From assembly GCF_000191065.1 (NCBI RefSeq), contig NZ_GL872282.1, positions 845,725 through 909,724 of the forward strand: a stretch of DNA of 64,000 bases, written 5' to 3'. The position numbers were made by a program, and so were the translations under genes. This stretch comes from Prevotella multiformis DSM 16608 (GTDB lineage: Bacteria > Bacteroidota > Bacteroidia > Bacteroidales > Bacteroidaceae). The notes beneath the pieces were generated by a model, which was not told the DNA's origin, made no database searches, and saw nothing but the letters and a program-made list of their open reading frames with translations. How positions within the stretch are numbered: the stretch's first letter is position 1; each line of letters begins with the position of its first letter. Shown here piece after piece: positions 21,901 to 38,053 of the stretch.

Positions 21901-22487
21901 GCCATGTCGGTCTGTATCTCGCCGTCGGGATTGATCTGCCGGATGGCCTTGACGGAAGGCTGTTCCAGTCCCACATAATAATAATAGGTGGAGGTGACGA
22001 TGGCGAACTCTGTCCGCGCATACACCATGCGGCGCCGCTGGCGGGCGGAGAGCAGGCTCTCGTCCTCCTCGATGCGGTGGAGCCGCTTCTGTGCCTTCTC
22101 GTAGTAGTCGTAGAACTCCTTGTTGAGCGACTCGCGCTGGCAGAGACGCATGAGCTGGATGTCCGCCACCAGAAGCTCCACCTGGTTGTCGGTGATCTGG
22201 AGTACGGAGTCGAGCTTGGCAAAGGCTTCCGTGAAGCGCATCTTCATCAGGTCGGCGAACGCCAGGTTGTTCAGGGCCTCTGCCCGTCCGGCATCGTACC
22301 GCTTCGCCAGCCTGTACGCCCGCCGGGCATACAGGTCGACCGAGTCGAGGCTGCGGTAATGGAAGGCGTAGGCCTTGTCGTTGCAGGCATCCACCTCCTG
22401 CTGGTGGGGGATGCTGCATGCCGTCAGCAGCAGGCACAGGCCTGCCGCCCATCCTGCTGCCGTTCTGTATAGCCTTCTTTTCTTCAT
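18912..22487 (-). CDS. Large sensor protein, DUF5112/DUF5113-type histidine-kinase-like
   Basis: This 1191-residue protein seems to be two kinase-like modules in one chain. Residues 1-19 are a lipoprotein-like signal (AAGLCLLLTAC). TPR-like helices follow, then a transmembrane segment (LNLIIAAVGLSILIVLALLVLF, about 405-425), a DHp-like helix (LVNSVIPLIDRMLHEI) and an HATPase domain (NTLADNARKFTG, VADTGCGLS, HGFGLMNCNGII). After that come a second membrane segment (MAVLLLSAVCGLTA), another sensory region, a third segment (VAVALLILFLLSIFPVYYVMY), a helix with LKHETMYYPSRI as candidate phospho-His site, and a poorly conserved ATP-binding end. It matches the DUF5112-DUF5113 architecture known from Prevotella. 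It is the first gene of the operon. Confidence 0.8.
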   Translation of the reverse strand: MKKRRLYRTAAGWAAGLCLLLTACSIPHQQEVDACNDKAYAFHYRSLDSVDLYARRAYRLAKRYDAGRAEALNNLAFADLMKMRFTEAFAKLDSVLQITDNQVELLVADIQLMRLCQRESLNKEFYDYYEKAQKRLHRIEEDESLLSARQRRRMVYARTEFAIVTSTYYYYVGLEQPSVKAIRQINPDGEIQTDMAQLLDYYYNIGAGGIFTTGTQEAVSQREFDYLMRCYMLARQHGYPYWEANSLQALSEHLVNDRSRRTLMRDNLPSFQFLNLDNMPDSLLAGNLVQRSLNIFRKYGDVYQTAGSYRTLASCYWQIKDYRSAIICLQKALNDNPAIRQAPDLVASIREQLSVTYSAINNKQQSDYNRNIYLDLQDETRQDRYLASRAEQLDRTSQQLNLIIAAVGLSILIVLALLVLFHYLRRRSDRRSSLDDLLLPLEQWRRQNGQHRAAMTEKYGEIAEQLDLCRLHLVDNRRKNLEQRAKVSLVNSVIPLIDRMLHEIGRLKKGGESETLKAERYTYICELTDKINELNTVLTQWIQLRQGRLSLHIESFPVQQVFDIVKKGRMGFQMKGIDLRVEDTGAVVKADRVLTLFMVNTLADNARKFTGRGGRVTIRAAEEEGYVEISVADTGCGLSETQQAHIFDYKPIRDQGDCTSHGFGLMNCNGIINKYRKISQIFSVCRIGVESREGRGSRFFFRLPKGISRMAVLLLSAVCGLTAASARPVRAIDKAAALARHDYSTLAGIYADSAYFSNINGSYSQTLAYADTCRYYINQLYRRLRPKGKDLMLRTGSLPNVPAEIRWIQEGIPMDYAVILDIRNESAVAALALHEWDLYRYNNSVYTHLFKERYADRSLGEYCRMMMKSETNKNVAVALLILFLLSIFPVYYVMYYRRRLSYQFCLERVKSINTILLSDMDVQEKLREVERAASDRFPPRLLAIVTQIRDALLASVEEDQKSQADIEMLEDEVRCTEYENERLHISNSILDNCLSTLKHETMYYPSRIRQLVDQPGNQLDSIDELAVYYKELYLILSQQAMHQVEGVKLIARPLDLAALVSTAKLTAPVPAVPPVSGDPVLIAYLFDILYQSNHSRPLTVSAGEGQPGYVTLHVLMSALHLSDEACRQLFQPSADHLMSFICRQIVRDNGEATNRRGCGISATATPDGTSVKVVLSQSSQETKTKDTYGEF

Positions 22488-22531
22488 CTGTCTTGTTTCG
22501 CCTTGCTGACTTTCTTCTGTGAAATTGAAGG

Positions 22532-22539
22532 CAAATATA
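22532..22539 (-). promoter_or_regulatory. Candidate -7 box of the sensor operon
   Basis: The minus strand reads TATATTTG 45 bp upstream of the sensor ATG at 22487. The -33 element at the exact spacing is weak. The 480-bp gap 22488-22970 holds this box, the tkt promoter and nothing else I can identify. Confidence 0.55.
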
Positions 22540-22910
22540 CAAAACTTTTCCCAAACGGCGGACTGCCGGCGGGAGAATCTTCCTGTGCCCGCCCTCTCCG
22601 GCTCTGTGGACCGGTACAGGTCTGTGTCTGGCCGGAATCCTTAGGGGCAGGTGGATAATGATGTCGCACAGGATTTCACGGCATCGCTGAATCCTTGCGG
22701 GCAGGAGGATGCGGGATGTGTCCTGGACTTTGCCGCACCGCCGGTCAGACATGAACATCGTGAACATTCCGTGAATATCCGTATGTTCAGAAGGAATCTT
22801 CCGTGTTTCCCGGATGCCGTCCGGACGGGTAGGGGAGACGGACCGGTTCCGCCGGAAAGCGGCCTTTTGGGGGATGCGGAACGATTTTATGAAAAATGTA
22901 ACCTGATTAT

Positions 22911-22941
22911 TTTGAGTTCTCCTTATTTATCTTTATATTTG
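22911..22941 (+). promoter_or_regulatory. tkt promoter
   Basis: TTTG (22911-22914), 19 nt, TATATTTG (22934-22941), a perfect Bacteroidetes-type promoter 29 bp before the tkt ATG. Confidence 0.8.
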
Positions 22942-22970
22942 CATTATAATAAATTAAATCCAATCTATAT

Positions 22971-24986
22971 ATGAATGACAAGAAGCTGATGAACCGCGCG
23001 GCAGACAACATCAGAATCCTCGCAGTGTCAATGGTTGAGAAAGCCAGATCAGGTCATCCGGGAGGTGCCATGGGCGGTGCAGACTTTATCAATGTCCTTT
23101 TCTCTGAATTCCTCGTCTACGATCCGGACCGGCCGGAATGGGCAGGACGCGACCGTTTCTATCTCGATCCGGGACACATGTCGCCGATGCTCTATGCGGC
23201 GCTGACGCTCCAGAGAAAATTCACTGTCGACGACATCAGGCAGTTCCGCCAGTGGGGATCGGTCACGCCAGGCCACCCGGAACGCGATCTGGCACACGGC
23301 ATAGAAAACTCGTCGGGGCCGCTTGGACAGGGACATGCCTATGCGGCAGGAGCCGCCGTGGCGGAGAAGTTCCTCGAGGCACGCCTCGGGCATACCATGA
23401 TGCAGCACAAGATATACGCCTACATCTCCGACGGCGGCGTCCAGGAAGGCGTCAGCGCAGAAGTCGGAAGACTGGCAGGCGCATTGGGCCTGGACAACCT
23501 CATCATGTTCTATGATTCCAATGACATCCAGCTCTCTACCGAATGCGGTGCCGTCATGGCGGAAGATACGGCCATGAAATACCGGGCATGGGGATGGAAC
23601 GTCATGAAGATTGACGGCAACGACCCCGATGCCATCCGGGAGGCACTCGCCGCTGCCAACAGGGAAGAGAACCGCCCCACCCTCATCATCGGTGACACCG
23701 TCATGGCCAAAGGCGCACGCCAGGCCGACGGCAGCAGCTACGAACACAGCATAAAGACACACGGCGCACCGCTCGGAGGCGATGCCTATATAAATACGGT
23801 GAGAAACCTCGGCGGCGACCCTGACGACCCGTTCAGAATCTTCCCCGAAGTACAGCAGCTCTACGACGACCGTGCTGCCGAACTCCGGAAAATCGTGGCG
23901 GAACGCCATGCCGCGGAGGCCGGCTGGGAAAAGGAGAATCCGGAGAAAGCGGCACAGATGCGGCAGTGGTTCTCGGGCAAGGCGCCGGAGATCGACTGGA
24001 GCGGTCTTGTGCAGAAGCGTGACATCCCGACACGCAACGGATCGGCAGCCTGCCTCGGCCTGCTGGCAGAACAGGTGCCGAACATGATCGTGTCGTCTGC
24101 CGACCTCAGCAACTCCGACAAGACCGACGGCTTCCTCAAGCACACGCATTCCTTCGTCCGCGGCGACTTCAGCGGCGCCTTCTTCCAGGCCGGTGTGAGC
24201 GAACTGGCCATGGCATGTATGTGCATCGGCATGATGCTCCATGGCGGTGTCGTCACGGCAATGGGTACTTTCTTCGTCTTCTCCGACTACATGAAGCCGG
24301 CCATCCGCATGGCGGCCCTCATGCAGGTGCCCGTGAAGTTCGTGTGGAGCCACGATGCGTTCCGTGTCGGCGAGGACGGCCCTACCCACGAACCTGTCGA
24401 ACAGGAGGCGCAGATCCGCCTGATGGAGAAGCTGCAGAACCATGCCGGACAGGATTCCGTCCGTGTGCTCCGCCCTGCCGACAGCGATGCGGCGACCGTC
24501 TGCTGGCAGATGGCCATGGAGAATACTGACACGCCGACGGCCCTCATCTTCTCCCGGCAGAACGTGAAGAGCCTGCCGGAAGGAACCGACTACCAGCTGA
24601 CCCGCAGGGGGGCATACATCGTGAAAGGCTCTGACGAACCGTTCGATGTGATTCTCCTCGCCAGCGGATCAGAAGTGGCCACCTGTCTCGACGGAGCGGA
24701 GCTTCTGCGCAGGGACGGACTGAAAGTGCGGGTCGTCAGTGCTCCGTCGGAAGGGCTCTTCCGCCGGCAGAGCAAGGAGTATCAGGAGCAGGTACTTCCG
24801 GAGGATGCAAGGATCTTCGGTCTCACGGCCGGCCTCCCCGTGACGCTCGAGGGAATGGTCGGTGCACACGGCATGGTGTATGGTCTCAACAGCTTCGGCT
24901 TCTCCGCTCCTTACAAGGTGCTGGATGAGAAACTGGGCTTCACCGCCGAGAATGTATACAGACAAGTGAAAGAATTTTTAGCATAG
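22971..24986 (+). CDS. tkt: Transketolase
   Basis: A 671-residue cytoplasmic, thiamine-diphosphate-dependent enzyme that moves two-carbon units in the non-oxidative pentose phosphate pathway. Visible hallmarks are SGHPGGAMGGAD near residue 25, the H-bearing SSGPLGQGHAYA, the Mg-TPP site SDGGVQEGVSAE and, in the pyrimidine domain, VWSHDAFRVGEDGPTHEPVEQ. Length is normal. It is followed 65 bp later by rpiB, which supplies a transketolase substrate through ribose-5-phosphate, so the pair forms a small pathway operon. Confidence 0.97.
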   Translation: MNDKKLMNRAADNIRILAVSMVEKARSGHPGGAMGGADFINVLFSEFLVYDPDRPEWAGRDRFYLDPGHMSPMLYAALTLQRKFTVDDIRQFRQWGSVTPGHPERDLAHGIENSSGPLGQGHAYAAGAAVAEKFLEARLGHTMMQHKIYAYISDGGVQEGVSAEVGRLAGALGLDNLIMFYDSNDIQLSTECGAVMAEDTAMKYRAWGWNVMKIDGNDPDAIREALAAANREENRPTLIIGDTVMAKGARQADGSSYEHSIKTHGAPLGGDAYINTVRNLGGDPDDPFRIFPEVQQLYDDRAAELRKIVAERHAAEAGWEKENPEKAAQMRQWFSGKAPEIDWSGLVQKRDIPTRNGSAACLGLLAEQVPNMIVSSADLSNSDKTDGFLKHTHSFVRGDFSGAFFQAGVSELAMACMCIGMMLHGGVVTAMGTFFVFSDYMKPAIRMAALMQVPVKFVWSHDAFRVGEDGPTHEPVEQEAQIRLMEKLQNHAGQDSVRVLRPADSDAATVCWQMAMENTDTPTALIFSRQNVKSLPEGTDYQLTRRGAYIVKGSDEPFDVILLASGSEVATCLDGAELLRRDGLKVRVVSAPSEGLFRRQSKEYQEQVLPEDARIFGLTAGLPVTLEGMVGAHGMVYGLNSFGFSAPYKVLDEKLGFTAENVYRQVKEFLA

Positions 24987-25051
24987 ACGTTTAACCTGGG
25001 CCTTTCGTCCGCCGGAGGCGGACGGAAGGACTCATAAAACCTAAACAGCTT

Positions 25052-25498
25052 ATGGAAATTAAGACAGTAGGAGTTGCCTGCGACCACGCAGGCTATCCGT
25101 TGAAGCAGTTCGTCATCCAGTATCTGGAAGAACACAAGTACCCATATAAAGACTTCGGTTGCAACAGCGACCTGAGCTGTGACTATCCCGACTACGCCCA
25201 TCCGCTGGCTGAGGCTGTCGAGAAGGGTGAGGTCTATCCGGGCATCGCCATCTGCGGAAGCGGCGAGGGAATGGCGATGACACTCAACAAGCATCAGGGG
25301 GTGCGCGCCGGACTGGCATGGAACAAGGATGTTGCCGAACTGATACGCCAGCACAACGATGCCAATGTCCTGGTACTCCCGGGCCGGTTCATCGACAACA
25401 AGACCGCCGGAAAAATTCTCGATGAGTTCTTCAAGGCTGGATTCGAGGGCGGCAGACACGAACGGCGTGTCAAGAAGATTGCCATGCAGCAAGGATAG
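25052..25498 (+). CDS. rpiB: Ribose 5-phosphate isomerase B
   Basis: Interconverts ribulose-5-phosphate and ribose-5-phosphate. The 148-residue protein shows the RpiB/LacAB fold landmarks: VACDHAGYPLK near the N-terminus with substrate-binding Asp-His, DYPDYAHPLAEAV, the ICGSGEGMAMTLNKHQGVRA loop and RHNDANVL-like QHNDANVLVLPGR. It follows tkt on the same strand. Confidence 0.96.
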   Translation: MEIKTVGVACDHAGYPLKQFVIQYLEEHKYPYKDFGCNSDLSCDYPDYAHPLAEAVEKGEVYPGIAICGSGEGMAMTLNKHQGVRAGLAWNKDVAELIRQHNDANVLVLPGRFIDNKTAGKILDEFFKAGFEGGRHERRVKKIAMQQG

Positions 25499-25539
25499 AA
25501 AGCTGACCGGCAGGCGGACTCAGGCAGAGGGCGGAGGCT

Positions 25540-25765
25540 GCCCTCTGCCCTTTGGGTGAGGCTGAGCAGCCGGTCAAATGGCTGGTCCAGCCGGCAGAGG
25601 CAGAAGTTTGTCCTCTGCCCTTTGAGTGAGGCCGAAGCGGCCGGTCAAATGTCTCTGATCCGGCTGACGGCGACTGCGAGTTCTTCCTCTGCCCTTTGGG
25701 TGAGGCCGAAGCGGCCGGTCAAATGTCTGATTCGGCTGGCGGCGACTGCGAGTTCTTCCTGTGTA
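25540..25765 (+). repeat. Tandem repeat of about 70-75 bp, 3 to 4 units
   Basis: Units carrying CCTCTGCCCTTTG, GTGAGGC and GCCGGTCAAATG recur at about 25541, 25610 and 25685, with a degenerate fourth at about 25753. They start 40 bp after rpiB. No gene is seen. A 3'-untranslated or regulatory RNA role is possible but unsupported. Confidence 0.75.
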
Positions 25766-26030
25766 CTTTTAACGGCGTCAGAATGCGAACTGACGGCCAG
25801 ACGACTTTTAGTCTGTAAGTTAAGACTCTCTGAAGGCAAACAGTCCATTTCTTTACTTGCAAGCGAGTTTAGGAATGGGCTTTTCCTGTGGTGATTCCTC
25901 TGTAAAGCTCCTTGGTATAGCTTCCCTCCCCAAAAAACTCTGCCAAAAGGAAATCCCTCCCAGTCCCAAAAAGGAAACTCCCCTCCCCGAAGGAGGCAAC
26001 TGCCTGACGGAAGTAACTTGGGATAATGCC

Positions 26031-26150
26031 AACTGCCGTTTATCCACGCTTATTCCCGCTTATCCACGCCCATTCCCGCCTATTATCGCCCATTCCCGCC
26101 CATTCCCGCATCTCCTTACCCGTTCTCGCCTATATCTCCCTTATCCTCCC
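26031..26150 (+). repeat. Tandem decamer array, copy 2
   Basis: From 26041 ten-bp units run in register (TATCCACGCT, TATTCCCGCT, TATCCACGCC, CATTCCCGCC and so on), then decay into a CTTCATTCTCT-type tract up to about 26270. Upstream lie a CCCCTCC/GAAGGAGG stretch (25983-25996) and TGGGATAA (26019-26026), the same order as at 6321-6478 on the other strand. The 1-kb gap 25499-26514 holds this, the 70-bp repeats and the tRNA promoter. Confidence 0.8.
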
Positions 26151-26436
26151 CGTTCCCTCCTTACTGCTTCTTCCTCTTCATTCCCTCTTCATTCTCTCTT
26201 CATTCTCTCTTCATTCTCGTCTATTCCCGCCTATCCCTGCTTTTCCTCACCCATTCCCAACCTACCGCTTCTTCCCACTCGTTTCCTCCTTACGGCTTAT
26301 GCTTGTCAAGAGGTTGTAGATTTTAAAGTCTCTTTGCGAGAGAGTTTACTCTTCAATCAACAGAATGGGACAGGCTGACATTCTTCATGACAAAATGGTT
26401 AAAAAGTGTTTTAATCCTCAAAACGCCTGTCTCAAA

Positions 26437-26468
26437 TTTCACATTCTCGAGAATTATTCCTACCTTTG
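26437..26468 (+). promoter_or_regulatory. tRNA-Ser promoter
   Basis: TACCTTTG (26461-26468), preceded at 20 nt by TTTC, 46 bp before the tRNA. Motif match only. Confidence 0.6.
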
Positions 26469-26514
26469 CACCGCTTTTCACAAGGAAGCAGGAACGCTTT
26501 ACGGTTCCTTTTAT

Positions 26515-26599
26515 GGAGAGATGGTAGAGTGGTCGATTACAACGGTCTTGAAAACCGTCGTACCGAGAGGTACCGGGGGTTCGAATCCCTCTCTCTCCG
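26515..26599 (+). tRNA. tRNA-Ser (UGA)
   Basis: Acceptor GGAGAGA pairs with TCTCTCC (26592-26598). The anticodon loop CTTGAAA sits in an ACGGT/ACCGT stem with anticodon TGA. A long variable arm (TACCGAGAGGTA) identifies a class II tRNA, and the T-arm reads GGGGGTTCGAATCCCTC. CCA is not encoded. Its 3' end is the attachment site of element 1, whose insertion rebuilds the complete tRNA sequence. Confidence 0.96.
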
Positions 26600-26600
26600 C
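26588..26600 (+). other. attL of element 1
   Basis: The last 13 bp of the tRNA region, CCTCTCTCTCCGC, recur exactly at 44180-44192, next to an integrase gene. This is the expected core duplication of a tRNA-targeting integrative element. Confidence 0.8.
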
Positions 26601-26604
26601 AAAC

Positions 26605-26642
26605 AAGGGTGTAAATCAACGGGTTACGTGATTTACACCCTT
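26605..26642 (+). terminator. Hairpin at the left end of element 1
   Basis: AAGGGTGTAAATCA (26605-26618) pairs perfectly with TGATTTACACCCTT (26629-26642). It can end tRNA-Ser transcription and insulate the element. The ATTTACACCC arm also occurs beside the integrase at about 44049-44060, so it may instead be an integrase arm site. Confidence 0.6.
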
Positions 26643-26744
26643 TATTACACCCGAATTTTCTATTACCTAAGAAAACTTATAGCATTTCCTTTATTACAAT
26701 ATCCGTTTGTTTTTGTGAAAGTAATAATTATCACATATACAATT

Positions 26745-27356
26745 ATGATTTACGGATATATCAGAGTTAGCAGCGATAAGCAAACAGTAGAGAATCAACG
26801 CTTCGAGATTAGCAACTTTTGTAAACATCAAAATCTTTCAATTGACGATTGGATAGAGGAAACTATCAGTGGTACAAAGAACTATAGCAAACGGGAACTC
26901 GGCAGATTACTCAAAAAGGTAGGAAAGGACGATATTATTATTTGTAGCGAGCTATCACGTCTTGGCAGGAATCTCTTTATGATTATGGAAATACTGAACA
27001 TCTGCATGACTAAGGAATGCAGAGTCTGGACTATCAAAGACAACTATCGCCTTGGGGATGATATTCAGAGCAAAGTTCTCGCTTTTGCATTCGGACTATC
27101 GGCAGAGATTGAGCGTAACCTTATCAGCCAACGCACAAAAGAAGCGTTGGCGAGAAAGAAAGCTGAGGGTATTGTACTTGGTCGTCCTAAAGGTCGCAAA
27201 AGCTCCCCCGACAAATACAAACTTTCTGGTAAGGAAGTTCTCATATCAGAGTTGTTGAAGAATGGTACATCCCTTCGAAAAATAGCGAAGATTTGCAAGG
27301 TTGATAGGAATACCCTTGCACGGTTTATTAGACTCAAAAGATTGGTAGAAAACTAA
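26745..27356 (+). CDS. Serine recombinase, Hin/Mpi DNA-invertase family
   Basis: A 203-residue site-specific recombinase from the ATG at 26745. The catalytic serine lies in IYGYIRVSSDKQTVENQ (residue 9 or 10). The arginine-containing helices ICSELSRLGRNLFMI and AEIERNLISQRTKEAL follow, then a C-terminal helix-turn-helix DNA-binding part (LLKNGTSLRKIAKICKVDRN). Small serine recombinases of this size are typically invertases. Its stop TAA is immediately followed by the 22-bp inverted repeat, and the silent specificity cassette begins in an overlapping ATGA, so it lies just outside the proposed invertible segment and its own expression should not change with inversion. Most likely it drives that inversion; this is inference from position. 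Confidence 0.85.
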   Translation: MIYGYIRVSSDKQTVENQRFEISNFCKHQNLSIDDWIEETISGTKNYSKRELGRLLKKVGKDDIIICSELSRLGRNLFMIMEILNICMTKECRVWTIKDNYRLGDDIQSKVLAFAFGLSAEIERNLISQRTKEALARKKAEGIVLGRPKGRKSSPDKYKLSGKEVLISELLKNGTSLRKIAKICKVDRNTLARFIRLKRLVEN

Positions 27357-28216
27357 TGAGCGATTTTGTGCGGCAACAAGATACCATTTGTGACTTTTCA
27401 ACATCGGATAGTTGGGTCGTGCTTTCACCGATTGAGCAAAGCATTAAAAAGAAGATAGAAGCAATAGGCACACCATTGAAAGATTGGGATATCCAAATCA
27501 ACTATGGCATAAAGACAGGCTGTAACGAGGCTTTTATAATATCGACAGAGAAAAGGAAAGAAATCCTTGATAACTGTCAAACTGAGGACGAACGCAAAAG
27601 AACGGCTGAACTTATTCGACCTATTCTGCGAGGCAGGGATATAAAGAGATATGGATATGTTGACAATGAATTATTCCTAATCAATACTCACAATGGCATA
27701 AAGGGCAAACTCCTACGTATTAATATCAATGACTATCCTGCTGTAAAGGCACATTTAGACCAATATTGGGATAAAATATCTGTTCGTTCGGATAAAGGAG
27801 ATACACCATATAATCTCCGTAACTGCGCTTATTTGGACTTATTTTTTCAGCCACATATATGCTGGAAAGCTGTAGGGCGTAATCTTTCATTTGCAAAAGT
27901 TGATAGCGGAATATTTTTAACAGCCCCAGCAAGTTTCATCTCGGCAGGAGAATACAATGATTATTTGTTGGCATTACTATGTTCAGATGTTAGTAAATAT
28001 TTTATTTTTAAGAACAGTGATACAACAGGCGCTGGCGATATTATGCTTAATATCCAATCGCTCATTAAATTTCCAATACCTATAGATTTTGACATGAAAT
28101 ATATATCTAAAATCCTCAACATGCCTAATAAAGAGGAAATGGTAAATTTGTATGTTAAACAGTTGTATGGATTTAGTTATGACGAATGGGAATATATAAC
28201 AACATATCGGATTTGA
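27356..28216 (+). CDS. Silent target-recognition cassette for the Eco57I-like methyltransferase
   Basis: The 286-residue reading frame has no methyltransferase or nuclease domain. It aligns with the C-terminal third of the facing gene at 28240-31626: SDFVRQQ, DSWVVLSPIEQSIKKKIEA, TGCNEAFII and ELIRPILRGRDIKRYGY are shared. After that the two diverge completely. No promoter is seen; translation could at most be coupled to the recombinase. The reading is a donor cassette: inversion across the 22-bp repeats would join it in frame to the methyltransferase body and place its own stop (TGA at 28214) at the new 3' end. Calling it a stand-alone protein would be misleading. Confidence 0.85.
   Translation: MSDFVRQQDTICDFSTSDSWVVLSPIEQSIKKKIEAIGTPLKDWDIQINYGIKTGCNEAFIISTEKRKEILDNCQTEDERKRTAELIRPILRGRDIKRYGYVDNELFLINTHNGIKGKLLRININDYPAVKAHLDQYWDKISVRSDKGDTPYNLRNCAYLDLFFQPHICWKAVGRNLSFAKVDSGIFLTAPASFISAGEYNDYLLALLCSDVSKYFIFKNSDTTGAGDIMLNIQSLIKFPIPIDFDMKYISKILNMPNKEEMVNLYVKQLYGFSYDEWEYITTYRI
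27357..27378 (+). repeat. Inverted repeat IR1, copy at the silent cassette
   Basis: Twenty-two bp beginning TGAGCGATTTTG and ending GCGGCAACA, identical to the reverse complement of 29162-29183. Sequence similarity drops immediately on both sides, as expected of a recombination site. Confidence 0.85.
27598..27642 (+). repeat. Inverted repeat IR2, copy in the silent cassette
   Basis: Forty-five bp (AAGAACGGCTGAAC at the start, GGCAGGGATAT at the end), identical to the reverse complement of 28898-28942, with 11 more matching bases after one mismatch. It encodes RTAELIRPILRGRD in both cassettes. The flanking coding sequence on the 5' side is only moderately similar, so this perfect block suggests recent exchange or selection as a recombination site. 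Confidence 0.85.
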
Positions 28217-28227
28217 TAACACGCTAC

Positions 28228-28257
28228 GAACAGGGAGAATTAGAAAGCTCCCTGTTC
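28228..28257. terminator. Shared bidirectional terminator between the two cassettes
   Basis: GAACAGGGAG (28228-28237) and CTCCCTGTTC (28248-28257) form a perfect 10-bp stem with a 10-nt loop at the centre of the invertible segment. One arm also encodes the last residues of the active methyltransferase (EQGAF, stop at 28240). A TATAAAATT follows on the plus side. It would serve either cassette orientation. Confidence 0.7.
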
Positions 28258-31200
28258 TATAAAATTAAGCTCGTCTGCATTCAAATTATACCATGAACAA
28301 ACTGCACGATTAATTTTTTCTTCTAATTCAGAATTGCATTTATTTATATTGTATTCCACAGCTTTAATGATATAATCTATTTCATTCTGTGGTAATTTGG
28401 GAATTGGGAAGTTCTTAACATATTGTGCAAGCATTCTAAACTGTCTTTCTTGTAACTGTGAAACATATAGTTTTGTAAGGAAGCGTCCCATCTTGGAATT
28501 AATAACACCAAGAATAAAGCGCACATCTTCCGTATTACTACTAATGATGTATGCAGTATTTAATACTATTTTGTTGCTATTATCATAGGAAAAACATGGG
28601 AATAGATAGCCTTCTTTTTCATTATCTGTTTGTATTTCCATATATACAATCTTTGGCTTAGAAAAATCCTCCCAATAACTGATACTATCCTGTGTCTCAA
28701 ACCATTTATTATGGGTTTTCTTACGGGCTTTCACTTTCTCACCATTTACAATATGCGTTTTACCTGTTTGCTCCAACCTTTCAATACCGAAAGAAAGTAA
28801 GTATTGTTTAACTGCTGGGTACTCATCAATACTGTAATGGCGTGAGGGGAAAGTGGCAATAAGCCATAGTTCAGCCCACTCATACCCATATCTCTTAATA
28901 TCCCTGCCTCGCAGAATAGGTCGAATAAGTTCAGCCGTTCTTGTCCGCTCGTCATCAGTTTGGCAATTTGCCAATATCTCATCACGCTTTTCGGTATTGA
29001 TAATAAAGGCCTCATTGCAACCTGTCAGCACACCACGATAGATGTTTATATTCCAATCTCTCAATGGCGTACCAACAGCTTCTATTTTCTTTTTGATGCT
29101 TTGTTCAATAGGTGAAAGAACCACCCAACTGTCAGACGAGCCAAAGTCGCAAACGGAGTTCTGTTGCCGCACAAAATCGCTCAAATTCTTTACACTATCT
29201 TTATTCTGCTTATTGGTAATGGCGCAGGTTGTTTTATGCTGGTTATTAGACCTTGAGATAAGTAAGATATTTGTGTCAACAGTAGCACTCTCAAAGATCT
29301 TCACTCCAGCAAAGTCTATAAGCAGTAATGGGTTTGTCTTATTTGCAAAGAAGTCTCTTGTCTTCTCTCCATATCCTGCACGCATCCATTTGTTGGACGT
29401 AATATAGCATAAGTGCCCATCTTTCTTCAATAGCTGCCATCCACGTTCATAGAACAGACAATAGATATCACCTGTACGTGCAAAGGTGAAATATCCACAC
29501 CCTTCATACAGTTTCGCTAATTCTCCACCATTATTTTGAAGTTGTATGTATGGCGGATTGCCAATGACGATATCAAAACCATCAGCTACTCCGAACATCC
29601 ATTCTGGGTCAAAGAATGAGCTTGTATCATTCTGGTCGTATGGATTCCATTCTGCAAGTTGTTTGGCATCATCAGATGCAAAGTTATTCTCATCAGATAA
29701 AAGTTCTATTAGTTCTTCGCGTAAGGCTAAATCCTTCTCTCTTAAGCGGTGTTTTGTAGAAGTCGACTTAGCAGAAAAATGTAGATGACGTATCTGATGT
29801 AATTCTTTCTTTATTGACTCTATCTCCTCACTTTTAAAGAGGTTTAACTGACGATCTTCCTTCTTCTTTGCAATAAGTGAGTTTGCTGAAACAAAATTAG
29901 TTTCAAGGTTAGGCAATGTTGGGATGCCGAAGTTTGGTTTAGAGGCATCTTTCTCACAATTACATATTAAGGAAATGAAGAAGCGCAGTTTTGTTATCTG
30001 TGCTGCAATACTCTGTATATCACAGCCGTATAGGCAGTTCTCTATAACAGACAGTTTGAGTTCATAAATATCTTCATTAGGTGATATTCGTTCAAGGATG
30101 TCAATTATTCTGTTTAACAGTCCCATAGGAAAAGCACCAGAGCCACAAGCAGGGTCAAGTATCTTGACAGCCTTTAGTTTGTCAGCAATCTTTAGATATT
30201 CATTACTCTTTGCTTTGTCAAAAGTGAAATCATAAGAAAAAAGTGAACGAACAAAGTCATTGTTTCCCAAATAGGCAATGAGACTTTCATCAACCATATA
30301 ATTGACAATCTCACGTGGTGTATAGAATGAGCCACTTTGGTTGCGTGCCGTCTCTTTTGTTTCTGGGTTATAGGCACCCAACAAGTTTTCGAAGACTTTA
30401 CCTAAGAGTTCAGGGTCAAGTGCTACCTGCTGTTCCTCAGGTGAGTTCTCCTCAATAGTAAAGTTATATCGGCTCAGAATGGAGAGCAATCCTTTCTCTG
30501 GTTCAAAGAAAAGAATGTTCGGAACTACAGCACGATGCTTGTATCGACCATCCGCAAAACGAGCATCATTACGACTGAACCCATCAAAATTATAGCATTG
30601 TTCAACACCATCAATATAGCGTGTCTTATCTAAACACTCAAAGAGGCCTCCATTCAAGAACGGAACTTCAGAGAAGAGGTTGACAATTTCCTGTTCGCTG
30701 ATAGAGAACATTTCAGCGTATCTATATAGTGTCTTGACATCTCGTTTAGTTGAAGTGGCAAATTTACGTGTATTGCCATTCTCGTCCTCAATGGCACAAT
30801 TCAAGGTAGCAAAGAAAAGATTCTGGAGAATAGCATTATAATAGTTACCGACAGTCGTGCTATATGGGTCGAACTCTTTCAGTATTGTTGAAAGATATTC
30901 AATATCAAAGATTCGGTTTGGCACCAATTCTTTCTGTTTGATAAACCATACGAACATAATACGGGTTATCATACGTATAACCTTCTTTTCTACATCGTCC
31001 CTATCATCATCTTCCGTAGTTATATTATTAGGGAAGGTTACCTGAGTAGAGTCGTCTATAGCCCACTGATACCACTCAAACAAGTCTTTGTAGAATTGTT
31101 TGGTGAGTGTCTCAACAGAAAAGGCCTCGGTGATGTCAGTTAAAGCTTGTTTACTTTCTTTCAACTTTCCAAACTGCTTTATAGCTGTGTGGCATCCACG

Positions 31201-31626
31201 TCCTTCTCCAAGCAAATAGGTATAACGTTTTGTATCAGTAGATATTTTTTCATATTCTCCCTGTTTGTTGAAGCCCCAAGTCTCGCTTACATAGGAGAAA
31301 CGTAGTATGCTTTCATTCTTGCGATAGCAGAACATAAAAGCACCTGCATGATTGGTGCGCCAGTCCGTGGTGAGCATATCACGAATGCCACGCCGATTAC
31401 GCTCTATATCTACATTGTCTGAGAGTTCTACTTCGTAAATGGCAATAGTCAAGCCATCTGACAATTTTATATAACCCAAGTTTAATGCTTCTTTAGCCAA
31501 ATGACTGCTTACATGAACCTTTCCTGGACTATTATGAAAAGTAACCTTGTTCAGGAATATGTCATGAAGCAGTTGCTGCCATGATTCACGGTTATATTTT
31601 GATTCAATAATCTCTTTGTAATTCAT
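28240..31626 (-). CDS. Eco57I-like restriction-modification methyltransferase, active specificity allele
   Basis: This 1128-residue protein combines an N-terminal region of uncertain fold (SDGLTIAIYEVELSD and RGIRDML could be nuclease-like), a helical linker and an N6-adenine methyltransferase core. Motif I (LDPACGSGAFPMG) is at about 490-500 and motif IV (GNPPYIQLQ) at about 689. The C-terminal target-recognition part begins near residue 815. The methyltransferase class is that of Eco57I-type and PglX-like enzymes. It follows the helicase gene by 15 bp, so the two are one transcript. Its last about 310 codons form one arm of the invertible segment, so target specificity is predicted to vary. 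Methylation and cleavage have not been shown; the N-terminal nuclease reading is weak. Confidence 0.85.
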   Translation of the reverse strand: MNYKEIIESKYNRESWQQLLHDIFLNKVTFHNSPGKVHVSSHLAKEALNLGYIKLSDGLTIAIYEVELSDNVDIERNRRGIRDMLTTDWRTNHAGAFMFCYRKNESILRFSYVSETWGFNKQGEYEKISTDTKRYTYLLGEGRGCHTAIKQFGKLKESKQALTDITEAFSVETLTKQFYKDLFEWYQWAIDDSTQVTFPNNITTEDDDRDDVEKKVIRMITRIMFVWFIKQKELVPNRIFDIEYLSTILKEFDPYSTTVGNYYNAILQNLFFATLNCAIEDENGNTRKFATSTKRDVKTLYRYAEMFSISEQEIVNLFSEVPFLNGGLFECLDKTRYIDGVEQCYNFDGFSRNDARFADGRYKHRAVVPNILFFEPEKGLLSILSRYNFTIEENSPEEQQVALDPELLGKVFENLLGAYNPETKETARNQSGSFYTPREIVNYMVDESLIAYLGNNDFVRSLFSYDFTFDKAKSNEYLKIADKLKAVKILDPACGSGAFPMGLLNRIIDILERISPNEDIYELKLSVIENCLYGCDIQSIAAQITKLRFFISLICNCEKDASKPNFGIPTLPNLETNFVSANSLIAKKKEDRQLNLFKSEEIESIKKELHQIRHLHFSAKSTSTKHRLREKDLALREELIELLSDENNFASDDAKQLAEWNPYDQNDTSSFFDPEWMFGVADGFDIVIGNPPYIQLQNNGGELAKLYEGCGYFTFARTGDIYCLFYERGWQLLKKDGHLCYITSNKWMRAGYGEKTRDFFANKTNPLLLIDFAGVKIFESATVDTNILLISRSNNQHKTTCAITNKQNKDSVKNLSDFVRQQNSVCDFGSSDSWVVLSPIEQSIKKKIEAVGTPLRDWNINIYRGVLTGCNEAFIINTEKRDEILANCQTDDERTRTAELIRPILRGRDIKRYGYEWAELWLIATFPSRHYSIDEYPAVKQYLLSFGIERLEQTGKTHIVNGEKVKARKKTHNKWFETQDSISYWEDFSKPKIVYMEIQTDNEKEGYLFPCFSYDNSNKIVLNTAYIISSNTEDVRFILGVINSKMGRFLTKLYVSQLQERQFRMLAQYVKNFPIPKLPQNEIDYIIKAVEYNINKCNSELEEKINRAVCSWYNLNADELNFIEQGAF
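28898..28942 (-). repeat. Inverted repeat IR2, copy in the active gene
   Basis: Reverse complement of 27598-27642 over 45 bp without mismatch. It encodes residues about 895-909 of the methyltransferase. Confidence 0.85.
29162..29183 (-). repeat. Inverted repeat IR1, copy in the active gene
   Basis: Reverse complement of 27357-27378 over 22 bp. It encodes LSDFVRQQ at about residues 815-822, right at the start of the specificity part. Confidence 0.85.
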
Positions 31627-31641
31627 TGTTCGATATTTGAT

Positions 31642-34600
31642 TTATTGGAAACTTTCGGAAAGTATAATTTCTGCGTCTGTTTCTTGTTGATTCAACATTG
31701 TTTCTTCTGCAATATAATAAGGGGCATACTTTTGCGCCATTGTGATGATTTCGCTGAAAGCCTCATCATGTGTCATTCGAGCTTTACCGCCAGTACGTCG
31801 AAGGTTTTTCTGGATACGTTGTAAACGCTTGGCAATATAGGTGATAACACCACGCTCCACCAATGTTTTTAGATGTGCAACTTTGATGTAAAGGTCATTG
31901 TCTCCAATCTCATTCATAAAATTGTTCAACAGATTGATAGCCGTACTAACCTGCGCACCCAAATTATAGAGATCTTTCTGCGAGGTTTCTTGTATACGGA
32001 TTTCCTCGTCTTGAATAGTACGGAACTTTGTCAAGACTTTCTCCACATGCTTGTGATGGTTGCTTATACGAGTAACAGGTTTCTCATCCTTAGTTGCTTT
32101 GAAGTAATTAAGTGCATCAAGAACGGAAATTTCTTGAGCATTTTCCGACACAAGGAAGAACACTTTTCGGAAGTTTGTCTTTAAGAATACCAGTGTGTCT
32201 TCAGATAGCGTAACACCATTAATAGTTTTAGACTCTCGCCCTGTTCGACTGCGTAAGGAAATCTTAGCAATACGGTTGTATTCCTGTCGGTTCGTCTTAA
32301 AGAGAGTACGAAGCTCCTCATAGAAAGGTAGTTCCTTGTTAATATCTTTCTTTTGCTCGTTCACTCCTTCTTCAAACAATTTACTTAGGTTACGGTCTAT
32401 AATTTCTTCTTGAGAATAAATTTGATTATCCTCACCAAATGTACTATGAAATGATTGGATTTTGCTTAATGCAATCTGGTTCAGATTAATTTGTTTATTA
32501 CCTTCCCTTGAAGGGTAGAAAACATAGTTATAGATATGCTTTGAGGCAGAACCAATACGATTAACACGACCAATACGCTGCATCAGCCTTGTCGAATTCC
32601 ACGGCGTATCATAATTCACAATCACATTAGAACGATGTAAGTTGACACCTTCTGCCAGTACGTCTGTCGTCAGGATGATATTATACTCGTTGAGTTTCTG
32701 CTTGTAGTTAGCATCAAAGTTCTCACGTATTGTCTTAAATTGTTTATTGCGATTCTGTGCAGAGATTACCAATACGTCCTTACGATTGATTCTACGTTTT
32801 AGATAGTCAACAGTATCAACTGACTCAGAGAACACAACTAACTTTTTCTCTGGGTTTCGATCACTTCTGAAAAGTTCATGTTTTAGTAACTCATTAAACT
32901 TGGCAAACTTAGAATCATCTTCATCAGAAATATCTTTCCAATCAGCTAACATTTGTTCAAGGATAGCTTGATCATTATGTAGCATATCTATAAACTCTGG
33001 ACGGAAATCAGCAGCATGAAAGATTGCGTTCTTAGGATTGTTAGAAGCTTTAGCGTTAAGTTTCTCTTCGATTTCTTCTTCGGATAATCCAGACTCCAAT
33101 AGCAGATTGATGTCAAGGTCTGGTGCAATATAGACCTTGTCATTATCAAACATGTCAATCATATTCTGATTGGCTTGATGGAAATTCTCTATAGAAACTT
33201 GAAATGCATAGAAACTACTTTCCAAACGCTTTACAAGTCCATTCTTTCGAATTCCTGCAAGGCTACGGCTTATCAACTCTGCATTGTCATAAAGACCATT
33301 TGCGACTTCTGGTTTTAAGTATGCAATAGCTTGATAACGTGCATAGGTAAGCTGCTTATCAAGAATCTGTATAGCCTGTTCAAAGAGATTGGCTAAATGC
33401 TCATTTAGCTCATACTGGTTCTCAATTGGATGTTCAACTTTAGGAAATCCATTCACATCCTTGTTGTATCGGGGTATACTTTCTATATCTGTTCGGGTAC
33501 GACGCACAGTTAATGGTTTAATGATACGGTCTCTTACCTTCTCTGCTAATCGTTTAAAATCCTCAATACTTGTATTGTTATTTTTTCGTAGTCTCTTGAA
33601 TTCTTTTATCAATGGAGAAAAGAATGCAGTAAGGTTGCTAACTCCATCAATGGTACAATGACGAGGGTCTTGGAAAAGTAATATCTCCGTATAGATATCA
33701 GCTGGAGAATTGTTCATAGGAGTTGCGGAAATAAGCATGACCTTCTTTTTGTAACCAGGAATATTACCTGCTTCTAAGCGTGGCATCTTGCAAATTTCTT
33801 GAAGTTGCTCAAAAGCTGATGTGGTATGACTACGGAATTTATGAGCCTCATCTACAAGTATGAGATCATATTCTTCTGCATTCCAATAATTATAATCCTC
33901 TTCATCAAGAACCTTGCTTAAGCTACCGTTTGTAATGAACTTGGCGTATTTGTCTATACCAAAATCTTTGAAAGTAGACTTCCAGTTCTGTTCTACTGCT
34001 GGAGGGTATACTACAAGAATCTTGGTGTGCTCATAACCATTCTCTATAAGGAATTTCTTTGCAATCATAGTTGCAACAATGGTCTTACCCAAGCCAACCA
34101 CATCCGAGAGAAAGAATCCATCATAGCGAATAAGCTTTTGATAGCCTTCTATGACGGCATCCATCTGATAATCATATTTCGTATAGCCCTCTGGCATATC
34201 AAAGGGATCAGCACTGTCGGTCTCAAGTACACGGTCAGCATAATACTCCATTAGCATCTTAATGTAAAGATCATAAGGAGGAACATCGCCTTTAAGATAG
34301 GTCCTGTCAATGGCTGCTTTTATATCTTCAGAAGTTATTTCACAACCTTCAGCTTCGTTCCATAACTGCTCGAATTCATCTTTTGCAAATTTCACATCAT
34401 CATATCGGTCCAACTTTACATTGAACTCATATTGCTTGTCCTGTGTTATTCCTAATCCATTCCCTGATAAATTACTTGAGCCTGTAATGGCCATACTTTG
34501 AGAGTACTGATTAAAATTATCGGGATATAGCACATATATCTTTGCATGAATCTTTTTGGAAGGATGAGCGCGTAATTCAAGTTTTTTGTCAAGAAGGTCT

Positions 34601-34962
34601 TGTACCATTAGATACATTCCATCTTCTATATCCTTACGATAGTTGGAAGTTTCTATGTCAGTTCTTATCTTTCTGAGATACTCTTCTTTAACCTCTTCTT
34701 CTGCTCCAAAAAATAGTTTTCCTTGCTGTGCCGCTTTAGCGATATATTTGTCTACATCTATGCCTATCAGTACTCTCACCTTTCCAATATTATCAAGGAA
34801 AGGGCGTAAGGAGAAGTAGCCAGATGCACGAAGAAAGCCTACAACAGCATCAAGGTTTCTGATTTGAGGGTTATGCTGCAATACCCCCTCAAACTCTTTT
34901 ATTAATGTATTTCCATCCTTATTGGTAAAGATGTGGGAATTGGGCTGCTGAATTGTATTCAT
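31642..34962 (-). CDS. PLD-SF2 (SNF2-type) helicase of the restriction-modification-like locus
   Basis: The 1106-residue protein has a phospholipase-D-like half at the N-terminus (HAKIY at 139-143 with ITGSSNLSG, an HxK-type motif) and a full superfamily 2 helicase. Walker A is DVVGLGKT (287-294), motif II DEAH (371-374), motif III SATPMNN and motif VI QRIGRVNRIG. Such PLD-helicases accompany DNA methyltransferases in several defence loci. It may supply translocation and nuclease activity against DNA that lacks the methylation set by the adjacent gene. Co-transcribed with the methyltransferase (15 bp). Only one HxK motif is evident, so nuclease activity would need dimerisation, as in other single-motif PLD enzymes. 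Confidence 0.88.
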   Translation of the reverse strand: MNTIQQPNSHIFTNKDGNTLIKEFEGVLQHNPQIRNLDAVVGFLRASGYFSLRPFLDNIGKVRVLIGIDVDKYIAKAAQQGKLFFGAEEEVKEEYLRKIRTDIETSNYRKDIEDGMYLMVQDLLDKKLELRAHPSKKIHAKIYVLYPDNFNQYSQSMAITGSSNLSGNGLGITQDKQYEFNVKLDRYDDVKFAKDEFEQLWNEAEGCEITSEDIKAAIDRTYLKGDVPPYDLYIKMLMEYYADRVLETDSADPFDMPEGYTKYDYQMDAVIEGYQKLIRYDGFFLSDVVGLGKTIVATMIAKKFLIENGYEHTKILVVYPPAVEQNWKSTFKDFGIDKYAKFITNGSLSKVLDEEDYNYWNAEEYDLILVDEAHKFRSHTTSAFEQLQEICKMPRLEAGNIPGYKKKVMLISATPMNNSPADIYTEILLFQDPRHCTIDGVSNLTAFFSPLIKEFKRLRKNNNTSIEDFKRLAEKVRDRIIKPLTVRRTRTDIESIPRYNKDVNGFPKVEHPIENQYELNEHLANLFEQAIQILDKQLTYARYQAIAYLKPEVANGLYDNAELISRSLAGIRKNGLVKRLESSFYAFQVSIENFHQANQNMIDMFDNDKVYIAPDLDINLLLESGLSEEEIEEKLNAKASNNPKNAIFHAADFRPEFIDMLHNDQAILEQMLADWKDISDEDDSKFAKFNELLKHELFRSDRNPEKKLVVFSESVDTVDYLKRRINRKDVLVISAQNRNKQFKTIRENFDANYKQKLNEYNIILTTDVLAEGVNLHRSNVIVNYDTPWNSTRLMQRIGRVNRIGSASKHIYNYVFYPSREGNKQINLNQIALSKIQSFHSTFGEDNQIYSQEEIIDRNLSKLFEEGVNEQKKDINKELPFYEELRTLFKTNRQEYNRIAKISLRSRTGRESKTINGVTLSEDTLVFLKTNFRKVFFLVSENAQEISVLDALNYFKATKDEKPVTRISNHHKHVEKVLTKFRTIQDEEIRIQETSQKDLYNLGAQVSTAINLLNNFMNEIGDNDLYIKVAHLKTLVERGVITYIAKRLQRIQKNLRRTGGKARMTHDEAFSEIITMAQKYAPYYIAEETMLNQQETDAEIILSESFQ

Positions 34963-35053
34963 ATATTCTTATTCGTATATAGATTATTCATGTTTACTTC
35001 TATAGTTTTAGAAATTGCACTGAGAATATCTATATTGTTGTTTTCATAAACTC

Positions 35054-35257
35054 CTATTTCACTAATTCTTTGGGGGACACGCCGAGCAGGTCTGCTACCT
35101 TGAAGATGGTAGCAAGATTAGGCTGCTTGCGGTTACAAACGTAGGCGTTGGTGATGCTGAAACTCATACCCAACTCTTTGGCGAGCCATGTTTGGGTGAT
35201 ACCTCGCTTCTTCAAATGTTCCTTAATGAGGTTGCTATGTTCTTTCTTCTGTCCCAT
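35054..35257 (-). CDS. XRE-family transcriptional regulator
   Basis: A 67-residue helix-turn-helix protein (GITQTWLAKELGMSFS, then NRKQPNLATIFKVADLLGV). It lies 91 bp upstream of the helicase on the same strand. The size and place recall controller proteins of restriction-modification systems, which delay restriction until methylation is complete. Control of the helicase-methyltransferase pair is inferred. A -7 box (TATCTTTG, minus strand, 35287-35294) lies 29 bp upstream of the ATG. Confidence 0.85.
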   Translation of the reverse strand: MGQKKEHSNLIKEHLKKRGITQTWLAKELGMSFSITNAYVCNRKQPNLATIFKVADLLGVSPKELVK

Positions 35258-35286
35258 TAGATGATTGTATATCTCAATATTAGTTA

Positions 35287-35294
35287 CAAAGATA
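35287..35294 (-). promoter_or_regulatory. Candidate -7 box of the XRE gene
   Basis: The minus strand reads TATCTTTG, matching TAnnTTTG, 29 bp upstream of the start codon. Probably the promoter of the regulator and perhaps of the helicase-methyltransferase unit too. Confidence 0.55.
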
Positions 35295-35516
35295 TGAACT
35301 TATAATGAATAAAACGAAGAAAAATAGAGCTTTAATGCAATTCAAATGATTTTTTCTTGTGTGAAGACCCAAAAGTAATTTATTAAGTAGTTAATGATGA
35401 TTGGAAATGAATATGCCTTTGTCCGAAACCATCCACTTTTTGAGTATGTATTGAGCGTTTTTGATAGTTGTTGATTTCCTTACATTTTCCTATACTTCCC
35501 GCTATATCCCAGCCTC

Positions 35517-35547
35517 TTGGAATAACATCAAAAGCCCTCTACTTTTG
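35517..35547 (+). promoter_or_regulatory. Promoter of the replication gene cluster
   Basis: TTGG (35517-35520), 19 nt, TACTTTTG (35540-35547), 66 bp before the DUF3853 gene. The 356-bp gap 35258-35613 otherwise holds only the XRE promoter. Confidence 0.6.
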
Positions 35548-35613
35548 TACTGTCAGAGCTGACTGAATGCCCTATGCGCAAGGGCGAGTTATTCATTTCA
35601 AAACAATTGAATT

Positions 35614-35922
35614 ATGACGATAAATGAATTACGAGACAAGCCTGTTTGGCAGATGACTGGTGAAGAATTGCTTTTCCTTGCACAACACGGTAATATATCC
35701 ACGAGCAGGGAATTAACAAAGGCTTCTTCCTCCAAAGAAGAAAAACGATATGTGTATGGATTGGCTGGTATAGCATGTCTTTTCGGATGCAGCTTGCCCA
35801 CAGCCAACCGTATCAAACAGAGTGGCAAAATCAATCGTGCCATTACACAAATCGGTCGTAAGATTATTGTTGATGCAGACCTTGCACTCGAACTGGCAGG
35901 ACGAAAGACAGGAGGACGATGA
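35614..35922 (+). CDS. DUF3853 family protein, excisionase-like
   Basis: A 102-residue protein (TINELRDKPVWQMTGEELLF) with a C-terminal winged-helix look (CLFGCSLPTANRIKQSG, IIVDADLALELAG) typical of DUF3853. This family is common in Bacteroides integrative elements just upstream of the replication ATPase. It probably binds DNA as an excision or replication accessory factor. It overlaps the next gene by 4 bp (ATGA). Confidence 0.8.
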   Translation: MTINELRDKPVWQMTGEELLFLAQHGNISTSRELTKASSSKEEKRYVYGLAGIACLFGCSLPTANRIKQSGKINRAITQIGRKIIVDADLALELAGRKTGGR

Positions 35923-38044: not shown

Positions 38045-38053
38045 TGTTTATCA

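What the first reader, a model, noticed from the sequence alone, without database searches (positions are those of the whole stretch)
26745..31626. Invertible target-recognition cassettes predicted to switch an Eco57I-like restriction-modification enzyme
A silent promoterless cassette (27356-28216) faces the 3' end of an Eco57I-like methyltransferase gene (28240-31626). Both share the opening block of the C-terminal specificity part and then diverge. Perfect 22-bp inverted repeats bound the 1.8-kb pair, and a Hin/Mpi-type serine recombinase gene lies directly outside one repeat. The two cassettes end at a shared terminator in the middle. This is the layout of a DNA-inversion switch. Type I hsdS inversion and PglX inversion are known. 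I know of no described case of a serine recombinase doing this for an Eco57I-like enzyme paired with a PLD-helicase, but I could not search. The basis is direct sequence for the repeats and open frames, and inference for switching.
Basis: partly seen in the sequence, partly recalled or inferred. Interest (0 to 1): 0.95.

Follow-up and report, generated by a model that had tools for sequence, protein, structure and literature searches.

The report
Recombinase-shuffled DNA methyltransferase target specificity
A likely Prevotella-group bacterium carries a DNA-methylating enzyme gene facing a spare copy of its target-recognising end, and near-identical public relatives carry the two halves of that end in all four pairings; the neighbouring recombinase is predicted to shuffle the halves by flipping DNA between repeated sites, which would let one strain keep changing which DNA words it marks and likely restricts.

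Summary
The layout is real: exact 22-bp inverted repeats (27357-27378 / 29162-29183) bound a 1.8-kb pair of target-recognition cassettes, with an Mpi-family serine recombinase just outside. It is more than the two-state flip first proposed. Three site types recur in the cassettes of relatives, mirrored >1>2>3...<3<2<1 in 18 of 28 mapped loci, with codons fixed beyond the protein's need; they divide the recognition end into a leading block and two half-TRDs. Among 56 full-length proteins (window included) with >=97% identical catalytic part and only the window's half-TRDs, all 8 pure block/TRD1/TRD2 combinations occur (7 of 8 at >=99%, 27 proteins), joined exactly at site 3. The reciprocal of the window also exists. 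Contigs of relatives often end at these sites. A gene pair of this shape in P. intermedia 17F has three published motifs (GGNYAG, CCNYAG, GGYGAB), two unexplained; they read as {GG,CC} x {NYAG,YGAB}. I conclude a serine-recombinase shufflon recombining two half-specificities of a type IIG-like Eco57I methyltransferase paired with a PLD-SNF2 helicase. Inversion in live cells and the motif of each half are inferred. Specificity shufflons are known for Type I hsdS; nine searches of an open-licence library showed none of this kind.

The parts
26515..26600 (+). tRNA-Ser(tga) beside the module
   Evidence: ARAGORN
26745..27356 (+). Mpi-family serine recombinase, predicted invertase of the module
   Evidence: NF009949 347.1 bits, cut-off 272; Resolvase PF00239
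27356..28216 (+). stored target-recognition cassette (286 aa); its ATG overlaps the recombinase stop
   Evidence: TaqI_C 28 bits, cut-off 26.5
27357..27378 (+). site 1, left copy (exact inverted repeat)
27598..27642 (+). site 2, stored copy (45 bp exact inverted stretch)
27653..27829 (+). stored TRD1 half (YNLRNCA class)
   Evidence: boundaries
27830..28213 (+). stored TRD2 half, including its site 3
   Evidence: boundaries
27835..27856 (+). site 3, stored copy, diverged (8 of 22 mismatches to the word used)
28228..28257 (.). hairpin between the converging cassettes, no T-run
28243..28677 (-). active TRD2 half, including its site 3
   Evidence: boundaries
28651..28672 (-). site 3, active copy (1 of 22 mismatches)
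28678..28887 (-). active TRD1 half (ETQDSIS class)
   Evidence: boundaries
28898..28942 (-). site 2, active copy
29162..29183 (-). site 1, right copy
28240..31626 (-). Eco57I-like adenine methyltransferase, type IIG-like; DPACGSG at aa 491, NPPY at aa 690
   Evidence: Pfam; PADLOC REase_MTase_IIG 440 bits; motifs
31642..34962 (-). PLD-SNF2 helicase, likely the restriction partner (HKD-like motif at aa 139)
   Evidence: Helicase_C and SNF2 above cut-off, PLDc_2 25.4 bits below its cut-off 27; motif

Best explanation
The window holds an Eco57I-like methyltransferase gene and an inverted second copy of its target-recognition end, each made of a leading block, a half-TRD 1 and a half-TRD 2 separated at recurrent DNA sites (the third is diverged in the stored copy), and the adjacent Mpi-family serine recombinase is predicted to invert the DNA between matching sites so that the halves are reshuffled onto the one expressed methyltransferase. 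Inversion at site 1 would swap the whole end, at site 2 both half-TRDs, at site 3 half-TRD 2 alone. Two cassettes would thus give eight arrangements and four TRD1 x TRD2 pairs, and relatives with spare TRD2 pieces more. Shown from sequence: the parts, the sites, their codon-level conservation, the recombinant and reciprocal relatives, the contig ends at sites. Inferred: that this recombinase does it, that it goes on within one population, that each half reads part of a six-base motif, and that the PLD-SNF2 helicase cuts unmarked DNA, making this a defence of changing specificity.
For: Sites: exact inverted matches recur at three positions (aa ~815, ~900, ~974-990); 18 of 28 mapped loci show the full mirrored set, against 11 site-like words in 738,262 upstream bases. 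Codons: the site 1 Ser is AGC in 47/49 (18% expected), the first site 2 Arg CGA in 66/69 (14%), the site 3 Glu GAG in 37/37 (40%). In four relatives with no stored cassette downstream (L096, L103, L108, L110) the words are absent. Shuffling: 271 of 294 proteins could be split; full-length ones with >=97% catalytic identity number 14 act/act, 15 sil/act, 23 act/sil, 4 sil/sil for TRD1/TRD2. These 56 include all 8 pure block/TRD1/TRD2 combinations (26 proteins; 30 have mixed or third-allele blocks); at >=99% 7 of 8 (27 proteins, 4 mixed). In all 45 full-length TRD1/TRD2 recombinants the change falls at the same two residues of site 3, where the window's two DNAs share only GGA; L033 shows the join at DNA level. 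Reciprocal: P0261 (full, sil/sil) and P0002 (cassette, act/act) list the same longest contig, 9733 bp; P0259 and P0012 61,811 bp. Association: of 33 loci with >=3 kb beyond the catalytic part 26 have an inverted cassette, 26 an Mpi-like recombinase, 24 both. Contig ends: 36 of 80 contigs end in the last 328 codons, 2 begin in the first 328 (p=5e-9); in G178 the MTase contig ends at site 1 and the recombinase-cassette contig at site 3. Methylome: P. intermedia 17F (PMC5608340).
Against: No reads or single-culture mixture were examined; the combinations come from different strains and metagenomes, so switching within a strain is inferred. The window's stored site 3 is diverged, though relatives with the same stored sequence are recombined there. 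L076 has neither cassette nor recombinase within about 8.9 kb, and L088 has no recombinase there, yet both keep good site words; L094 keeps site 2 without a cassette in 3.4 kb. So sites are not lost whenever the machinery is missing. P. vespertina (L033) has shuffled half-TRDs but its recombinase lies about 13 kb from the methyltransferase gene. Mixed leading blocks are common (30 of 56) and need ordinary recombination, third alleles or unseen sites. The Rikenella motifs quoted in PMC5608340 (CCGACY, CCRGAG, SCCAAB) form no obvious 2x2 set, and that draft gene is broken in TRD1. Codon p-values treat related loci as independent. Structure models were weak (pLDDT 67.5; 72.6).
Confidence: 0.86

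Rival explanations
1. The recombinase makes only a two-state flip at site 1; the finer mosaics at sites 2 and 3 come from RecA-dependent recombination between strains.
For: Site 2 lies in a conserved stretch with 45 bp identity that RecA could use; leading blocks are often mixed at other places (30 of 56); the stored site 3 is diverged.
Against: In 45 of 45 full-length recombinants the join between half-TRDs that are 18-23% identical falls at the same spot of site 3, with 3 bp of shared DNA there; site 3 codons are constrained like those of site 1; some loci have extra site-3 words beside TRD2-like pieces.
Confidence: 0.08
2. The second copy is a fixed, decaying duplicate and the diversity is ordinary horizontal exchange; the neighbouring recombinase merely belongs to the mobile island.
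For: The module sits beside tRNA-Ser in a probable island with mobilisation-like genes and a tyrosine-integrase-like ORF; L076 and L088 keep sites without a recombinase nearby.
Against: 24 of 33 loci in several genera keep cassette and Mpi-like recombinase together, reciprocal arrangements exist and contigs end at the sites.
Confidence: 0.03
3. The stored cassette is also translated and works in trans as a separate specificity protein.
For: Its ATG overlaps the recombinase stop codon (sequence) and the frame is open.
Against: The comparable small gene of P. intermedia 17F gave no methylation alone and added none to the large gene in E. coli (PMC5608340 passage).
Confidence: 0.06

Closest known systems
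Type I R-M hsdS shufflons (B. fragilis NCTC 9343 and 638R; S. pneumoniae hsdS inversions)
   Same: Inverted specificity cassettes with several repeat sets recombine target-recognition domains; the B. fragilis locus is described with eight possible polypeptides (PMC3090145 passages). S. pneumoniae seen in abstracts only.
   Different: Separate HsdS subunit and, in B. fragilis, tyrosine integrases; here one chain with methyltransferase and TRDs, a PLD-SNF2 helicase neighbour and an Mpi-family serine recombinase.
Pin17FIII / Pin17FORF9595 of Prevotella intermedia 17F
   Same: Convergent full gene and short second copy with an upstream SNF2/RAD54 helicase; three m6A motifs listed for the pair (PMC5608340). 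Likely the same system; its sequence was not compared here.
   Different: The main text has no 'recombinase', and the inversion passages found concern the Type I hsdS locus; two motifs were left unexplained.
PglX of BREX/Pgl (inversion of pglX recalled, not read here)
   Same: Related adenine methyltransferase; invertible C-terminal part (recalled).
   Different: Far below the PglX cut-off (89.2 of 500 bits); the partner gene here is a PLD-SNF2 helicase.
Mpi global DNA invertase of B. fragilis (recalled)
   Same: The recombinase belongs to that family.
   Different: Mpi is known for flipping promoters (recalled); here the sites lie inside coding sequence.
CamA, M.BseCI, MmeI and other gamma-class or type IIG/IIL enzymes
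   Same: Kinship by profile and fold.
   Different: Fixed single specificities as far as I recall.

Membership tests
Mpi-family serine DNA invertase | NCBIfam NF009949 score above the curated cut-off | tested here: met
   347.1 bits against 272
Mpi-family serine DNA invertase | inverts DNA between short inverted sites | not testable with these tools
   needs reads or an assay; sites and reciprocal arrangements are indirect
Shufflon (multi-site inversion cassette array) | several inverted sites, stored alternative C-terminal end, adjacent recombinase | tested here: met
   in the window the stored site 3 is diverged
Shufflon (multi-site inversion cassette array) | several recombinant forms of one gene in nature | tested here: met
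   all 8 pure combinations among 56 proteins at >=97%, 7 of 8 among 27 at >=99% catalytic identity
Type IIG R-M enzyme | gamma-class adenine MTase with TRD in one chain | tested here: met
   by family models
Type IIG R-M enzyme | nuclease in the same chain | tested here: inconclusive
   no Pfam nuclease family in aa 1-400; a PLD-like domain sits in the helicase instead
Type I R-M (hsdS shufflon) | HsdR, HsdM and separate HsdS genes | tested here: not met
   neighbouring ORFs are helicase, fused MTase-TRD and recombinase
BREX/Pgl PglX | PglX model above cut-off | tested here: not met
   NF033452 89.2 of 500 bits
DISARM | DrmD above cut-off | tested here: not met
   NF038317 152.2 of 610 bits

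The most novel reading that the evidence does not exclude
A combinatorial epigenetic shufflon: a single serine recombinase uses three sites hidden in the coding sequence of a one-chain methyltransferase to pair two half-TRDs independently, so that two cassettes yield four restriction-modification specificities and arrays with spare half-cassettes many more; it is spread over Bacteroidales and beyond, and explains the unassigned multi-motif methylation of P. intermedia 17F.
Probability: 0.78. Interest if true: 0.86.

Novelty: new variant of a known kind. Interest (0 to 1): 0.82.

Why it matters
It would extend specificity-switching by DNA inversion from Type I hsdS to a one-chain Eco57I-like methyltransferase, with a serine recombinase and sites kept inside coding sequence. 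It predicts recombination of half-motifs, a directly testable code: knowing which TRD1 reads which bases would let methylomes of many oral and gut Bacteroidales be read from sequence. It offers a concrete reason for an unexplained multi-motif methylome and for assemblies that end inside this gene, and it means a clonal culture may be a mixture of defence and epigenetic states.

Tried and rejected
Fold of the TRD end alone: pLDDT 72.6, no PDB match with E <= 0.001; not used. Full-length model pLDDT 67.5: best matches BrxX/PglX, CamA, BseCI, MmeI, used only for kinship. A classical terminator: not found. Phage origin: no match at E <= 1e-50 in 50,697 phage records; nine plasmid records match at 30-64% identity. 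A second copy of the tRNA-Ser end as attachment repeat: none in the window. A relaxed common word for all three sites in the own genome gave three hits, none in the window, so the word was wrongly spaced or too strict and I make no genome-wide claim. L111 was tested as a cassette-free control but dropped because its contig ends inside the gene. A crude HKD pattern in the helicases: 38 of 63, missing the 99%-identical L033, so the count is unreliable. Searches were script errors, repeated. Fitting the Rikenella motifs to 2x2 failed. Paper searches (open-licence PMC only, long lists capped: 20 of 21, 20 of 123, 12 of 246 and 15 of 1,777 shown) listed none that I recognised from title and abstract as this system. 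Passages were seen in PMC5903667, PMC13076061, PMC3090145 and PMC11868660, and passages plus part 1 of 5 of section 12 in PMC5608340.
Full report
What is there. The recombinase (26745-27356) scores 347.1 bits with the Mpi family model, cut-off 272. The stored cassette (27356-28216) and the methyltransferase's 3' end both carry a TaqI_C specificity domain; the methyltransferase has Eco57I and N6_Mtase domains and DPACGSG and NPPY motifs. The next gene is a PLD-SNF2 helicase (the PLDc_2 hit is just below its cut-off). The 22-bp inverted repeat is exact and each arm occurs once in the window. The two copies are 78% alike over 303 nt; beyond that the halves are 18-23% identical as proteins.

Three sites, not one. 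One search also found a 45-bp exact inverted stretch inside the cassettes. I fetched 80 relatives of the methyltransferase from named genomes (the best 80 of 435) and looked for exact inverted matches between each gene's 3' end and the DNA downstream. Three positions recur: site 1 (aa about 815), site 2 (about 900) and site 3 (about 974-990), where the protein reads roughly SDFVQQ, ELIRPILRGRDI and YWEDFSKPKI. Of 28 loci mapped by DNA words (window plus 27 chosen of 80), 18 show the full mirrored set >1>2>3 ... <3<2<1. Ten do not: the window (stored site 3 below threshold), L033 and L034 (one site 2 missing), L041 (one site 2 missing), L043 (site 1 and 3 of the gene missing), L091 and L105 (site 1 missing), L098 (one site 1 missing), L076 and L088 (no full stored copy). 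L041, L044, L060, L070 and L098 have extra site-3 words, as spare TRD2 pieces would give. At these thresholds 11 words occur in 738,262 upstream bases.

DNA constraint beyond protein. Against each locus's own catalytic-domain codon usage, the site 1 Ser is AGC in 47 of 49 copies (18% expected), the first Arg of site 2 CGA in 66 of 69 (14%; the next Arg 19 of 71 against 13%), and the site 3 Glu GAG in 37 of 37 (40%). The copies are those that fitted my peptide patterns (49, 71 and 43 from 37, 47 and 34 loci), and p-values overstate independence. Four relatives with no stored cassette found downstream (L096, L103, L108, L110; L103 has a partial recombinase match) do not keep the words. Against this, L076 (no cassette or recombinase found), L088 (no recombinase found) and L094 (site 2; only 3.4 kb downstream) do keep them; recent loss or a distant recombinase would explain that but was not tested.

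Shuffled relatives. Searches with the active TRD end and with the full enzyme listed the best 120 each of 7975 and 7892 hits, so these lists lean towards the active halves; a third, with the stored-type TRD2 of a natural full-length relative, listed all 77. Of 294 proteins 271 could be split at the sites; 23 were dropped. Full-length proteins with a catalytic part >=97% identical to the window number, for TRD1/TRD2, act/act 14, sil/act 15, act/sil 23 and sil/sil 4; a further 59 carry at least one other half. In these 56, counting a leading block as A (no stored-type residue) or S (at most one active-type residue) over 18 informative positions, the pure forms are A-act-act 3, A-act-sil 4, A-sil-act 4, A-sil-sil 1, S-act-act 2, S-act-sil 6, S-sil-act 5, S-sil-sil 1, and 30 have mixed or third-allele blocks. 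At >=99% identity there are 27: seven of the eight pure forms and 4 mixed; the eighth is there as stored cassettes (P0008, P0009). The window's own protein is one of these. In all 65 full-length proteins with these halves, YW/YL goes with TRD1 and EDFSKPKI/DLFFQPHI with TRD2; 45 of them are recombinants. In the window's DNAs (TTATTGGGAGG and TTATTTGGACT) the switch can only lie in GGA, and L033 shows such a join in its DNA; for the others it is read from the peptide. P0261 (full, S-sil-sil) and P0002 (cassette, A-act-act) list the same longest contig, 9733 bp, which would be the exact reciprocal of the window; P0259 and P0012 share 61,811 bp. That these are the same contigs is inferred from equal length.

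How general. Of 33 loci with at least 3 kb beyond the catalytic part, 26 have an inverted cassette, 26 a recombinase relative, 24 both. Those with both include Prevotella, Segatella, Bacteroides, Alloprevotella, Porphyromonas and Rikenella and, outside the phylum, the strain Parasutterella muris NM82_D38 (L100) and MAGs L085, L091, L098 and L105. In the 51 segments of loci and window that could be split, TRD1 falls into three classes (24, 21, 6) and TRD2 into 24 clusters at 50% identity; 7 of 9 recurrent TRD2 clusters occur with more than one TRD1 class and 8 of 9 in both active and stored position.

Signs of mixture. 36 of the 80 contigs end in the last 328 codons of the gene, 4 earlier in it, and only 2 begin in the first 328, a loss that should cost a similar score (p=5e-9); seven end in site 1, three in site 2, and three (L040, L059, L084) have a site-3 word in their last 60 bases. 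Others end between the sites. In G178, whose contig equals in length that of L049 (Hoylesella loescheii DSM 19665), the methyltransferase contig ends at site 1 and the recombinase-cassette contig at site 3. Long exact repeats can also end contigs, so this supports but does not prove mixed populations.

Function. PMC5608340 (passages and part 1 of section 12) describes in P. intermedia 17F a gene pair of this shape, Pin17FIII (22231-25584) and the convergent ORF9595 (25608-26525 c), with an upstream SNF2/RAD54 helicase. Three m6A motifs are listed for the pair: GGNYAG, CCNYAG and GGYGAB. The cloned large gene made only GGYGAB; the small gene made nothing and added nothing. The three are three of four members of {GG,CC} x {NYAG,YGAB}, which two independently shuffled half-TRDs would give. 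That reading is mine; I did not have the 17F sequence. The paper also quotes three motifs for Rikenella microfusus, the species of L069; these form no clean 2x2 set, and the draft gene there is broken in TRD1.

Limits. No reads, inversion assay or methylome of this strain were available. P. vespertina has shuffled half-TRDs but its recombinase lies about 13 kb from the methyltransferase gene on the same contig, so linkage is not absolute. Structure prediction added little. The novelty statement rests on nine paper searches of an open-licence library, with capped lists.

Noticed in passing
G000 contig C2:485539-486141 (L115:8489-9142): A second Mpi-family recombinase in the same genome whose first ~140 residues are nearly identical to the window's but whose C-terminal end is different, as if the recombinase had exchanged its DNA-binding part.
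   Followed up: partly
window 26515-44062: The module lies in a probable mobile island: tRNA-Ser at one end, ORFs that look like relaxase, primase and HTH genes, a YhcG-type nuclease (41450-42718, Pfam) and an integrase-like ORF (42731-44062); apart from YhcG these names are from reading the ORFs, not from a search.
   Followed up: partly
L033 and L122 (Prevotella vespertina): The recombinase keeps the sequence next to it that the window has, while the R-M genes lie about 13 kb away with shuffled cassettes, as after a larger rearrangement.
   Followed up: partly
L041, L044, L060, L070, L098: Extra site-3 words, in places beside TRD2-like pieces, which would enlarge the repertoire.
   Followed up: no
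MTase aa 815-900 (window 28888-29184): The leading block is mixed in 30 of 56 close relatives, with change points away from the three sites.
   Followed up: no
L069:8001-11133 (Rikenella microfusus DSM 15922): The active methyltransferase gene is interrupted early in TRD1 in this assembly although motifs are published for the strain.
   Followed up: no
L076, L088: Methyltransferase genes that keep the site words although no recombinase (and in L076 no cassette) was found within about 8.9 kb.
   Followed up: no
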